Below are positions 45,103 to 62,935 of a stretch of DNA of 64,000 nucleotides, piece after piece. The notes under the pieces were generated by a model. That model had not been told where the DNA came from, did not search any database, and worked only from the letters and a program-made list of their open reading frames with translations. Both the position numbers and the translations under genes were made by a program. How positions within the stretch are numbered: the first letter of the stretch is position 1; every line of letters starts with the position of its first letter. The stretch lies in contig NZ_CP077085.1 in the NCBI RefSeq assembly GCF_014268455.2, positions 1,426,001 through 1,490,000 on the forward strand, read 5' to 3'. This DNA is from Pseudomonas shahriarae (lineage in GTDB: Bacteria; Pseudomonadota; Gammaproteobacteria; Pseudomonadales; Pseudomonadaceae).

Positions 45103-46017
45103 ATGAGACTCCTCGGCATTCTATGCCTGCTCCTCACCCTCAATGGCTGCAGCTCGCTGCTGTTCTACCCCGAGCCCGGCCTGCCGTTCAGTCCACAGCA
45201 GGCGCGCCTGGAATACCGTGACGTCACCCTGACCACCGCCGATGGCCTGAAGTTGCGGGCCTGGTGGCTGCCAGCCAAGGCCGGCGTGCCGCTCAAGGGC
45301 ACGGTGCTGCACCTGCACGGTAATGGGGGCAACCTCTCCGGGCACCTGGGCGGCAGTTGGTGGTTGCCGGCCCAGGGCTATCAAGTGCTGATGCTGGACT
45401 ATCGCGGCTATGGCGTGTCAGAAGGCAAACCTTCGTTGCCGGCCATTTACCAGGATCTGGATGCCGCCTTCCAGTGGCTCGACCAGGCCCCTGAAACCCA
45501 AGGGCAGCCGCTGGTGGTCCTCGGCCAGAGCCTGGGCGGGGCGTTGGCCGTGCATTACCTGGCCGCACACCCCGAGCGACAGCCCCGGCTCAAAGCGCTG
45601 GTGCTCGATGGCGTGCCCGCCAGTTATCGTGATGTAGGGCAATTCGCCCTGAGCACTTCCTGGCTAACATGGCCGTTCCAGGTGCCGTTGTCGTGGCTGG
45701 TGCCAGACGCCGACAGTGCGATCCATGGCATGCCACAGCTGACTGGCGTGCCGAAACTGCTGTTCCACAGTCTGGATGATCCGATCGTGCCGCTTTCCAA
45801 CGGCATCCGTCTGTATCAAGCTGCGCCGCCGCCAAGGGTGTTGCAACTGACCCGGGGCGGTCACGTGCAGACCTTTGCCGACAAGACCTGGCAAACCGTA
45901 ATGCTGCGCTATCTTGACGATCCGCAGCATTTCAACGGTTTGCGCCGCCTGGGGGAAATTCCCAATTATCCGGCGGCTGCCAATCCTAAAACCGAATCAT
46001 CAGAGAGCCCGCAATGA
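45103..46017 (+). CDS. alpha/beta-hydrolase lipoprotein
   Basis: The 304-residue protein has lipobox LNGC (Cys near residue 15). The alpha/beta-hydrolase domain of the YfhR/Bem46 type shows LHLHGNGGNLSGH as the oxyanion loop, nucleophile Ser in VLGQSLGGALA, Asp in HSLDDPIVPL and His in TRGGHVQTF. It is likely a periplasm-facing esterase or peptidase attached to the membrane; substrate unknown. GAGG precedes ATG 45103. Its stop overlaps the start of the next gene. Confidence 0.85.
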   Translation: MRLLGILCLLLTLNGCSSLLFYPEPGLPFSPQQARLEYRDVTLTTADGLKLRAWWLPAKAGVPLKGTVLHLHGNGGNLSGHLGGSWWLPAQGYQVLMLDYRGYGVSEGKPSLPAIYQDLDAAFQWLDQAPETQGQPLVVLGQSLGGALAVHYLAAHPERQPRLKALVLDGVPASYRDVGQFALSTSWLTWPFQVPLSWLVPDADSAIHGMPQLTGVPKLLFHSLDDPIVPLSNGIRLYQAAPPPRVLQLTRGGHVQTFADKTWQTVMLRYLDDPQHFNGLRRLGEIPNYPAAANPKTESSESPQ

Positions 46018-46340
46018 GCGAAGAACGCAACATGATCCCCCTGATCCTCACCGGCATCGGCACCATCATCGGTACCGTTGGCTGCCTGTGGTACTACGGC
46101 TACCTGCACTTCGCCAAGCCTGAGGATGCGTTGCTGCTCAGCGACTACACCATGCTCAAGACCGTGCCCGGCGAGGACTACAAAGTTTCCCTGACCCCGG
46201 CCCCCCAAGTGGCGCAATGCGTCGACGGTGTGCTGGTGCTGTTCGATACCGAGCAAAAGGGGCTGACGGGCGTGCTGGTAAACAGCAAGAAGCAGGCGGT
46301 GCGTTGCATGGGCCAGGAAACCCCGCAACTGCAGGAGTGA
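46014..46340 (+). CDS. small membrane-anchored hypothetical protein
   Basis: The 108-residue protein has one N-terminal membrane segment (IPLILTGIGTIIGTVGCLWYYGYLHFA). A soluble part of about 75 residues has two Cys (VAQCVDGVLVLFD.., AVRCMGQ). The start overlaps the hydrolase stop (ATGA), so it is translated together with it and the product may act with the hydrolase at the membrane. No family recognised. Confidence 0.75.
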   Translation: MSEERNMIPLILTGIGTIIGTVGCLWYYGYLHFAKPEDALLLSDYTMLKTVPGEDYKVSLTPAPQVAQCVDGVLVLFDTEQKGLTGVLVNSKKQAVRCMGQETPQLQE

Positions 46341-46357: not shown

Positions 46358-46385
46358 GGAACCATATTCCGTATGACACCACTGA
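46358..46385 (+). promoter_or_regulatory. hrp box (HrpL/RspL-type ECF sigma promoter)
   Basis: GGAACC (46358-46363), exactly 15 bases, then CCACTGA (46379-46385) matches the HrpL consensus GGAACC-N15/16-CCACNNA at every fixed position. It starts 18 bases after the preceding stop codon and 80 bases before the harpin-like gene. A CGTCAGC-AGC-GCTGACG hairpin (46392-46408) lies in the leader. Confidence 0.75.
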
Positions 46386-46437
46386 TTGGGTCGTCAGCAG
46401 CGCTGACGAGTAACCCTTAATTACGTGGAGTATCACT

Positions 46438-46752
46438 ATGAGTATTAATGGAGTAGGCGGTGGTGGCAGCGGGTTCGGTAACTTCGGCAGCGCCGGCATG
46501 GGGGATTCCGGCAATATGGTTGGCAAGGGCGTCGAAGGCGGTCAGCAGCAGGGCGGTATGGATCCTGAAGCGCTGAAGAAACTCCTGGCGCAACTGTTGG
46601 GCGGTGCGGGAGGTGCAGGCGGCTCCCAGGGCAGTGGCGGCAGTGGCGGTGGTAACGAGGAAGAGGACCCGCTGCGCAAGCAGATGAGTGGCGATCAGCA
46701 GCAAGGCATGCAGATGCCTCAAGAGAACAACAGCCAAATCAATTTCGGCTGA
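46438..46752 (+). CDS. glycine-rich harpin-like protein under an hrp box
   Basis: The 104-residue protein is very rich in Gly, Gln and Ser, has no cysteine and no Sec signal, and is acidic near the C-terminus (NEEEDPLRKQ). It has one short leucine-rich amphipathic helix, DPEALKKLLAQLLGG (about 42-56), between Gly-rich stretches. This composition matches type III-secreted harpins such as Hpa1/HrpZ, though I cannot align it to a named one. GGAG lies 9 bases before the ATG. With the hrp box, secretion through a type III system is a reasonable hypothesis; no such system is in this window. Confidence 0.65.
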   Translation: MSINGVGGGGSGFGNFGSAGMGDSGNMVGKGVEGGQQQGGMDPEALKKLLAQLLGGAGGAGGSQGSGGSGGGNEEEDPLRKQMSGDQQQGMQMPQENNSQINFG

Positions 46753-46781
46753 TCCGCAGAGTCTGCCCGCAGTTCTTATGC

Positions 46782-46815
46782 AAAAAAGCCCTGCCTGGAA
46801 CACAGGCAGGGCTTT
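46782..46815 (-). terminator. terminator between the harpin-like gene and lptF
   Basis: GAAAGCCCTGCCTG and CAGGCAGGGCTTTTTT (read on the minus strand) form a long stem ending in a T-tract. It suits the minus-strand lptF best, and the A/T-rich flanks may also stop plus-strand reading. Confidence 0.85.
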
Positions 46816-46837: not shown

Positions 46838-47620
46838 TTATTGAACCGAAGAACGTGGCTTGACCGGCTGGTTGTCGTTGGAGATGGTCACTTCAACGCG
46901 GCGGTTCATGGCACGGCCCGAAACGCTGGCGTTATCGGCAACCGGGTATGCCTTGCCGTAGCCAGCAGTCACGATGCGGCTTGGGTTAACGCCCATCTTG
47001 ATCAGTGCAACCTGCACCGAAGTAGCGCGGCGCTCGGACAGGGTCTGGTTGTAGGCATCGCTGCCGGTGCTGTCGGTGTAGCCTTCGACGATGACTTTAC
47101 GATCCGGGTTTTCCTGGAGGAATTGCGCCAGTTTGTTGATGTTCACCAGGCCGCTGGATTTCAGATCAGCCTTGCTGGTAGCGAACAGCACATCACCAAA
47201 GGTCACCAGGGTCCCGCGTTCAGTCTGCTTGGCGTTCAAGCTGCTTTGCAGTTGCTTGATCTGCGCGTCACGGGCTTCGAGCAGGGCGCGGGCACGTTGG
47301 TCGCCAGCGTTTTTCAGCTTGGCTTCGGACTCGCGCAGGGCGATGGTGTCCTTGGCCACTTCAACGCGCTGGTTGGTCAGGTAGGCCAGTTGGTCGACCT
47401 TCTTCTCGTCTTCCTTGTCGCGGTACGCCTTGTCAGCCTTGTCCAGCCATTCGCTGGCGTCCTTGGTTTCCAGGGCGGCGATTTTGGTCGCTTGCGGGTT
47501 GGCTTGCAGGGCCGAGAAGTTGGTCCGTGCGTTTTCCAGGTTCGCGTTAGGCGGGGTGGAGCAAGCCGCCAGTGCAACGCTCATCGCCAGCAGGGCAGGG
47601 ATCATCAATTGTTTACGCAT
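46838..47620 (-). CDS. lptF: OmpA-family lipoprotein, LptF-like
   Basis: The 260-residue protein has lipobox LAAC (Cys20), then an N-terminal helical DUF4398-like part rich in charged residues (about 30-130). The C-terminal OmpA peptidoglycan-binding domain follows (VTFGDVLFATSKADLKSSG..VEGYTDSTGSDAYNQTLSERRATSV..GYGKAYPV). It anchors the outer membrane to the wall. In P. aeruginosa, LptF (PA3692) with PA3691 upstream has this arrangement and depends on AlgU; I assign the symbol on that resemblance. Confidence 0.8.
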   Translation of the reverse strand: MRKQLMIPALLAMSVALAACSTPPNANLENARTNFSALQANPQATKIAALETKDASEWLDKADKAYRDKEDEKKVDQLAYLTNQRVEVAKDTIALRESEAKLKNAGDQRARALLEARDAQIKQLQSSLNAKQTERGTLVTFGDVLFATSKADLKSSGLVNINKLAQFLQENPDRKVIVEGYTDSTGSDAYNQTLSERRATSVQVALIKMGVNPSRIVTAGYGKAYPVADNASVSGRAMNRRVEVTISNDNQPVKPRSSVQ

Positions 47621-62614: not shown

Positions 62615-62672
62615 GCCTGCGTGAATCGGCTACAGGGTTTAGGAACTTTTTCCTGCGTGTTTGCCACTTAGG

Positions 62673-62752: not shown

Positions 62753-62935
62753 ATGGGTTTATTTGCAATGGGTGGTATAGGTATAGGTCTGGGCATGATG
62801 CCGATGATGGCCTTCAAAATGGGCAAGCGCGGTAAATCCAAATGCAAGCCTCCGCCCTGCCACCACCACCACCACGCTCAACCGCCGCAGTTCTCCAGTA
62901 CCATCAAGTACGAGGGGAAAATCAGCTACAGCTGA
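62753..62935 (+). CDS. Cys/His-rich microprotein
   Basis: The protein has 60 residues. A Gly/Met-rich hydrophobic start (MGLFAMGGIGIGLGMMPMMAF) is followed by a basic stretch (KMGKRGKSK). Then comes CKPPPC directly followed by five histidines, and a polar tail (FSSTIKYEGKISYS). GAGG lies 8 bases before ATG 62753. The Cys-x4-Cys-His5 cluster could bind a metal, and the N-terminus could insert in a membrane. I know no family for it. It is isolated, with its own downstream terminator. Confidence 0.65.
   Translation: MGLFAMGGIGIGLGMMPMMAFKMGKRGKSKCKPPPCHHHHHAQPPQFSSTIKYEGKISYS

What the first reader, a model, noticed from the sequence alone, without database searches (positions are those of the whole stretch)
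46358..46752. Orphan hrp box driving a harpin-like gene outside any type III cluster
GGAACC-N15-CCACTGA matches the HrpL promoter consensus at every fixed base and sits 52 bases before a 104-residue Gly/Gln/Ser-rich, Cys-free protein with one leucine-rich helix. With eleven fixed bases and two allowed spacings, a chance match in 64 kb on both strands is expected about 0.06 times, so its placement here is unlikely to be accidental. Surrounding genes are ordinary envelope genes, so this looks like a solitary type III-secreted harpin or helper protein in a plant-associated strain, possibly undescribed.
Basis: partly seen in the sequence, partly recalled or inferred. Interest (0 to 1): 0.78.

Follow-up and report, generated by a model that had tools for sequence, protein, structure and literature searches.

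The report
Distant harpin-like gene of a secretion system
A small glycine-rich gene sitting far from the cell's protein-injection machine carries that machine's on-switch, and its place and switch recur in related Pseudomonas species that lack the usual harpin helper gene, so it may be the missing helper.

Summary
In detail: a perfect hrp box (46358-46385) lies 52 bases upstream of a 104-aa Cys-free, Gly-rich, acidic ORF (46438-46752). The motif alone proves nothing (9 strict genome matches against 15 for the reversed control). Comparison does. The genome has an rsp/rsc type III cluster with an RspL-type sigma factor about 299 kb away and no match to the harpin family PF04877. In the interval between a PA3694-family gene and lptF, 64 of 68 Pseudomonas genomes with fluorescens-type RspL carry an hrp box (62 canonical, 2 with one mismatch), nearly always with one or two small genes. 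Four diverged RspL genomes and all 35 examined genomes without RspL or with a distant HrpL have none. In box-blind alignments the 11 fixed bases are invariant while the spacer drifts. PF04877 harpin occurs in 52 of 52 genomes with distant-type HrpL but in 1 of 68 with fluorescens-type RspL. Best reading: an RspL-driven, probably type III-secreted, harpin-like protein at a fixed orphan locus standing in for the cluster-borne harpin. RspL control is well supported by sequence; secretion and harpin activity are inferred.

The parts
46358..46385 (+). hrp box GGAACC-N15-CCACTGA, predicted RspL-dependent promoter
   Evidence: box at the syntenic locus in 64 of 68 genomes with fluorescens-type RspL (62 canonical, 2 with one mismatch) and 0 of 35 others
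46427..46430 (+). ribosome-binding site GGAG
   Evidence: read directly
46438..46752 (+). 104-aa Gly-rich, Cys-free, acidic harpin-like gene
   Evidence: dN/dS median 0.24 over the 21 pairs of 7 close orthologues
46564..46608 (+). codons of the one better-predicted amphipathic helix (residues 43-57)
   Evidence: AlphaFold2, (whole-model pLDDT 57; block 41-50 averages 83)
46785..46815 (.). inverted repeat AAAGCCCTGCCTG/CAGGCAGGGCTTT, probable terminator between the gene and lptF
   Evidence: read directly; not tested
46014..46340 (+). PA3694-family gene, left boundary of the conserved interval
   Evidence: NCBIfam NF053721 over cut-off; found at 102 of the 103 loci read (not found in the 2.5 kb fetched for G031)
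46838..47620 (-). lptF (OmpA-related lipoprotein), right boundary of the conserved interval
   Evidence: NCBIfam NF053613 over cut-off

Best explanation
The gene is a distant member of the RspL (HrpL-type ECF sigma) regulon of a Pseudomonas of the fluorescens group. When RspL is made, RNA polymerase transcribes this gene together with the rsp/rsc type III cluster 299 kb away. The product is a mostly disordered Gly/Gln/Ser-rich polypeptide with one amphipathic leucine helix. It is most likely exported by that type III system and acts outside the bacterium as a harpin-like helper (touching host membrane or wall, assisting translocation), in the role that the cluster-borne HrpZ/RspZ harpin has in other Pseudomonas type III lineages. 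Shown by sequence: the box and its constraint, the sigma factor and apparatus, the co-occurrence, the fixed locus, the absence of PF04877. Inferred: transcription by RspL in cells, secretion, harpin-type activity, functional replacement.
For: rsp/rsc cluster with RscV, RscU, RscC, RscJ and SctD over their curated cut-offs, an RscN-like ATPase just below its own, an ECF sigma factor and a sigma-54 activator; the cluster's own promoters carry GGAACT or GGAACG boxes. Box in 64 of 68 loci of fluorescens-type RspL genomes against 0 of 35 others; a first-order simulation expects 0.037 of 63 genomes with a box. Box-blind alignments: 11 of 11 fixed bases invariant, against 6 of 15 spacer and 59 of 109 other columns in 7 close orthologues, and 4 of 15 and 20 of 109 in 8 more distant ones. 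No GGAACY box on the other strand in 41 kb. Purifying selection on the ORF, median dN/dS 0.24. 47 Gly-rich products: 0 Cys and 0 Trp in 4785 residues, 43 of 47 with pI below 6, 43 of 47 with an LxxLLxxL-like segment. PF04877 in 52 of 52 genomes with distant-type HrpL (51 over the curated cut-off) and in 1 of 68 with fluorescens-type RspL; that one, G197, also has a distant-type HrpL about 21 kb from its harpin. One relative, P0008, bears the UniRef name 'Type III secretion protein'. Clusters of this lineage are reported to lack the harpin gene (PMC4700148 and PMC6647874, passages).
Against: No expression or secretion data. No curated Pfam or NCBIfam family is hit by the gene or the locus-mates tested. 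Ser is 8% of the first 50 residues, failing one secretion rule. In 16 of the 63 genomes no Gly-rich product of 70 aa or more was called; most of these have only a short product of 46-79 aa that does not look like a harpin, G176 only a 31-aa remnant, and G121 and G136 had no call because of the box mismatch. Four diverged fluorescens-type RspL genomes have neither this locus nor PF04877. Presence and absence largely follow clades, so the co-occurrence counts are not independent events.
Confidence: 0.66

Rival explanations
1. The product is a type III effector injected into the host cell rather than an extracellular harpin or translocation helper.
For: Same promoter class; nine other boxes outside the cluster in this genome precede candidate ORFs, several with effector-like starts. 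[quoted passage not shown]
Against: About 100 aa, disordered and Gly-rich with one helix and no predicted enzymatic fold; the locus is in 64 of 68 RspL genomes, more universal than effectors usually are (recalled).
Confidence: 0.17
2. It is a needle/pilus subunit or other extracellular structural part of the rsp apparatus.
For: HrpA pilins are small, HrpL-driven and hypervariable (recalled); no needle gene could be annotated in a related strain (PMC12157919, passages).
Against: The cluster has its own 59-aa candidate at the rspA position behind a GGAACG box; the product is too Gly-rich and disordered for a helical pilin.
Confidence: 0.08
3. The product stays inside the cell, as a regulator or chaperone of type III secretion.
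For: Such genes can also be HrpL-driven (recalled); the short second genes at 16 loci do not look like harpins.
Against: 31% Gly and predicted disorder do not fit a folded chaperone.
Confidence: 0.06
4. The box is a chance match and the ORF is unrelated to type III secretion.
For: Motif not enriched genome-wide, 9 against 15 in the reversed control.
Against: Conserved at one place in 64 of 68 genomes with a drifting spacer; simulation expectation 0.037 of 63; 0 of 35 in the comparison group.
Confidence: 0.03

Closest known systems
HrpZ/RspZ harpins (Pfam PF04877) of P. syringae, P. fluorescens 2P24 and Q8r1-96
   Same: HrpL/RspL regulon, Gly-rich, Cys-poor secreted helpers (general features recalled); RspZ1 of 2P24 elicits cell death in tobacco (PMC4700148, passages)
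   Different: No PF04877 match anywhere in this genome; about 100 aa, against the model's 311 positions; encoded about 299 kb from the cluster at a fixed orphan locus
Hpa1/HpaG harpins of Xanthomonas
   Same: Small, Gly-rich, no Cys, acidic; HpaXpm has 23.2% Gly, 0 Cys, pI 3.57 (PMC6945534, passages)
   Different: No sequence comparison was run with them; different regulator (HrpG/HrpX, recalled); not beside the secretion cluster here
hrp-box candidate PFWH6_1252 of P. fluorescens WH6 (PMC2997014 Table 4, section read)
   Same: Box GGAACCGTATTGCGTAAGACGTCAC at distance 82, very like boxes at this locus (for example G176)
   Different: Orthology inferred from box and spacing only; listed there without translocation-signal features; no comparative pattern in the section read
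Candidate RspL-dependent genes of A506, SS101, BG33R, WCS374 and WCS417 (PMC3390384, PMC6647874, PMC4509608; passages)
   Same: Orphan genes behind hrp boxes in the same group of bacteria
   Different: The supplementary gene lists could not be opened, so I cannot say whether this locus is among them

Membership tests
RspL/HrpL regulon | Canonical hrp box at promoter distance from the start codon | tested here: met
RspL/HrpL regulon | Cognate ECF sigma factor and type III cluster in the same genome | tested here: met
   the sigma factor is named by position, no curated HrpL model was hit
RspL/HrpL regulon | Box conserved upstream of orthologues | tested here: met
   18 of 18 profile-found relatives; 64 of 68 at the syntenic locus
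RspL/HrpL regulon | Transcription depends on the sigma factor | not testable with these tools
   needs RNA data
harpins (functional class) | Glycine-rich, cysteine-free, acidic | tested here: met
   31% Gly, 0 Cys, pI 4.3; definition from PMC6945534, passages
harpins (functional class) | Heat-stable; [quoted passage not shown]
   bench assay
harpins (functional class) | Secreted by the type III system | not testable with these tools
   bench assay
[quoted passage not shown]
   2 of 3 met; Ser 8%
HrpZ family PF04877 | Match to the curated model | tested here: not met
   no Pfam hit for the protein, none in the genome
HrpZ family PF04877 | Encoded in the hrp/rsp cluster | tested here: not met
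   gene about 299 kb from the sigma-factor gene of the cluster

The most novel reading that the evidence does not exclude
The fluorescens-type Rsp secretion system is not harpin-less. Its lineage has replaced the cluster-borne HrpZ harpin with one or two changeable hrp-box genes at a single fixed chromosomal site between PA3694 and lptF, and this locus supplies the secreted helper that published surveys of these plant-beneficial strains could not find.
Probability: 0.45. Interest if true: 0.75.

Novelty: new variant of a known kind. Interest (0 to 1): 0.6.

Why it matters
Plant-beneficial Pseudomonas carry type III systems whose purpose is unsettled and whose clusters are reported to lack a harpin. 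A conserved orphan locus under RspL-type promoters, present in 64 of 68 examined genomes of this lineage and complementary to the harpin family in the genus sample, gives a concrete candidate for the missing secreted helper and one deletion to make. It also shows that single hrp boxes become informative when tested by synteny rather than by motif score.

Tried and rejected
Motif statistics alone: rejected as proof, because the reversed control has more matches than the real pattern. The per-position bit scores: the boxes had been picked by a pattern that fixes GGAAC, CCAC and the last A, so invariance there is by construction; I replaced it with box-blind alignments. Opposite-strand ORF 46417-46803 (128 aa, GTG): rejected because box, RBS and purifying selection belong to the plus-strand ORF. 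Pfam and NCBIfam: no curated family reached its cut-off for the gene or for the five other gene products of this locus or family tested with it. Phage collection: no match. Structure model too weak for a fold search, so none was run. Database search with the longer upstream-type product: 3 relatives, none with a functional name. Needle-subunit reading lowered after a candidate was seen at the rspA position. The profile search found 18 of 398 genomes, but reading the locus found many more, so 18 is a limit of sensitivity. BLASTP clusters of the 76 products used low-complexity masking and split even close orthologues, so they overstate variability. Automatic gene calls that are poor: G175 (wrong ORF; a 60-aa ORF like that of G321 is nearer the box) and G176 (31 aa); both stayed in the counts.

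Full report
What is there. The hrp box GGAACC-N15-CCACTGA is at 46358-46385 (+), the only strict match in the window. The start codon is 52 bases further on, preceded by GGAG. The ORF 46438-46752 encodes 104 residues with 31% Gly, no Cys and pI 4.3. AlphaFold2 gives a low-confidence, mostly disordered model (pLDDT 57) with one better helix at residues 43-57. Neighbours are an alpha/beta hydrolase, a PA3694-family gene, lptF and a DUF4398 gene.

Is it more than chance? Not from the motif alone: shuffled windows give 0.11 matches and 10 of 100 shuffles have one. The genome has 9 strict matches against 15 for the reversed control, and 22 against 37 for GGAACY. So conservation had to decide.

The machine it would belong to. 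The window lies in a 6.05-Mb single-contig genome. At C1:1173302-1191419 there is an rsp/rsc-type cluster: RscV (818 bits), RscU, RscC, RscJ and SctD over their curated cut-offs, an RscN-like ATPase just below its own (586.8 against 604.75), an ECF sigma factor of 183 aa and a sigma-54 activator. No curated HrpL model was hit; the names RspL, RspR, rspJ, rspF, rspG and rspA are by position and recall. The cluster's promoters carry GGAACT-N16-CCACACA before rspJ, GGAACT-N15-CCACATA before rspF/rspG and GGAACG-N15-CCACATA before a 59-aa ORF at the rspA position. The gene is 299 kb from rspL. No PF04877 harpin was found in the genome.

Conservation. A profile of the protein found 18 of 398 Pseudomonas genomes. 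All 18 also have RspL, which occurs in 120 of 398 at E 1e-25. All 18 sit between PA3694 and lptF with a strict box. I then read that interval in the 18 plus 80 genomes picked from the lptF table: the top-ranked ones and some with a distant HrpL. RspL hits were split by identity into fluorescens-type (66% or more, 68 genomes, among them G358 with a stop inside the match and G234 with a partial match) and distant-type (43-56%, 52 genomes). Of 63 fluorescens-type genomes read, 61 have GGAACY-N15/16-CCACNNA (57 strict) and the other two have GGAACG with the rest intact; 15 have two boxes. None of the 35 others (22 without RspL, 13 with distant HrpL) has a box, and their interval is at most 291 bases against at least 319. 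Five further fluorescens-type genomes were added: G320 has two boxes and two genes; G198, G244, G256 and G343, more diverged, have an empty interval of 91-170 bases. Totals: 64 of 68 against 0 of 35. A first-order simulation expects 0.037 of 63 genomes with a box. The other 295 of the 398 genomes were not read at this locus. For G031 the left boundary was not found and the whole 2.5 kb was scanned.

Constraint. The bit scores are circular at the bases that the search pattern fixes. In alignments made without regard to the box, the 11 fixed bases are invariant in 11 of 11 columns, against 6 of 15 spacer columns and 59 of 109 other columns in seven close orthologues, and 4 of 15 and 20 of 109 in eight more distant loci. 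Of the positions not fixed by the pattern, one search shows a T at box position 15 in 68 of 72 and a purine at position 21 in 72 of 72. No GGAACY box is on the other strand in 41 kb. Across the 21 pairs of seven close orthologues dN/dS has a median of 0.24, so the ORF behaves as a real gene.

What the products look like. 47 Gly-rich products of 70 aa or more hold 4785 residues with no Cys and no Trp; 43 of 47 have pI below 6 and 43 of 47 an LxxLLxxL-like segment. The locus is fixed but the sequence varies: the window's profile misses most of the loci read. The window's family and a second family (P0013-P0017) match over helix and tail by profile comparison (98.5%, to be read with low-complexity caution). 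In 16 of the 63 genomes no Gly-rich product was called: most have only a short product of 46-79 aa, G176 a 31-aa remnant, G175 was miscalled, and G121 and G136 had no call because of the box mismatch, though ORFs are there.

Complementarity with the known harpin. PF04877 matches 54 of 398 genomes, 53 over the curated cut-off: 52 of 52 with distant-type HrpL (several only as partial matches near 30 bits), 1 of 68 with fluorescens-type RspL, and 1 with neither (G273, a fragmented assembly). The one fluorescens-type case, G197, also has a distant-type HrpL on the same contig about 21 kb from its harpin. G186 and G338 also have a second, distant-type HrpL but no PF04877 match, and four diverged fluorescens-type genomes have neither harpin nor locus. 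The pattern largely follows lineages of the secretion system, so the Fisher values do not count independent events.

How it most likely works. RspL transcribes the gene together with the apparatus; the disordered product leaves through it and acts outside as a harpin-like helper. The first step is well supported by sequence; export and activity are inference. Two of three N-terminal secretion rules are met. One database relative carries the UniRef name 'Type III secretion protein' (P0008), a label and not a test.

What is known. Strains of this lineage are reported to lack the cluster harpin: SBW25 lacks hrpZ1 (PMC4700148, passages), no rspZ in WCS417 or WCS374 (PMC6647874, passages), no rspZ in WH6 (PMC2997014, passages). 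Hrp-box surveys give 11-15 mostly novel candidates in five strains (PMC3390384, PMC6647874, PMC4509608; passages), but their supplementary lists could not be opened. PFWH6_1252 (PMC2997014 Table 4, section read) is probably this locus in WH6. I did not see the syntenic pattern or the complementarity in six literature searches, seen as listings, nor in the passages or sections read of eight papers.

Verdict. A real, RspL-linked, harpin-like orphan locus. It looks built like a harpin but is not a member of PF04877. New variant of a known kind; interest 0.6.

Noticed in passing
window 62642-62670 (+), ORF 62753-62935: A second box in the window, GGAACT-N16-CCACTTA, precedes a 60-aa ORF with a Gly/Met-rich start and a Lys/Pro/Cys/His-rich tail; box and a similar ORF are present with drift in G191 (L148, read by eye), and G361 has a box at the corresponding distance.
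   Followed up: partly
own genome C1: 1143772, 1938715, 3963488, 3963982, 3965105, 4175636, 4661357, 5732256 (L002, L004, L005, L133, L006, L007, L137, L140): Eight other GGAACY boxes upstream of candidate ORFs, several with Ser/Pro/Gln-rich starts. L002, L004, L007, L137 and L140 align with box loci of one or both of two relatives, but so do boxes inside ordinary genes, so this alone is not proof; gene calling was rough.
   Followed up: partly
window 46393-46407 (+): A short inverted repeat GTCAGCAGCGCTGAC just downstream of the box is kept in similar form in the aligned loci of relatives; it may be a 5' hairpin or an operator.
   Followed up: no
L022:10139-10318 (-), own genome C1:1190139-1190318: A 59-aa ORF with a Gly/Ser-rich start behind a GGAACG-N15-CCACATA box at the rspA position; candidate for the needle/pilus subunit that could not be annotated in related strains.
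   Followed up: partly
two-box loci L043, L054, L055, L056, L059, L065, L066, L069, L071, L076, L080, L124, L125, L126, L127, L175: At 16 of 68 loci a second hrp box precedes a short product (52-79 aa), in most with an MLxMARxHxxLE-like start and an ADDTxRTIxF-like tail; single-gene products of other species share such ends around a Gly-rich middle, suggesting fusion or insertion.
   Followed up: partly
72 boxes with N15 at the locus: A T at box position 15 (68 of 72) and a purine at position 21 (72 of 72), beyond the consensus used here; possibly part of the RspL recognition sequence.
   Followed up: no
own genome C1:4234310-4245142 (L023) and C1:1871956-1886818: Two further SctV/SctN-like sets below the type III cut-offs; probably flagellar export genes, so possibly two flagellar systems.
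   Followed up: no
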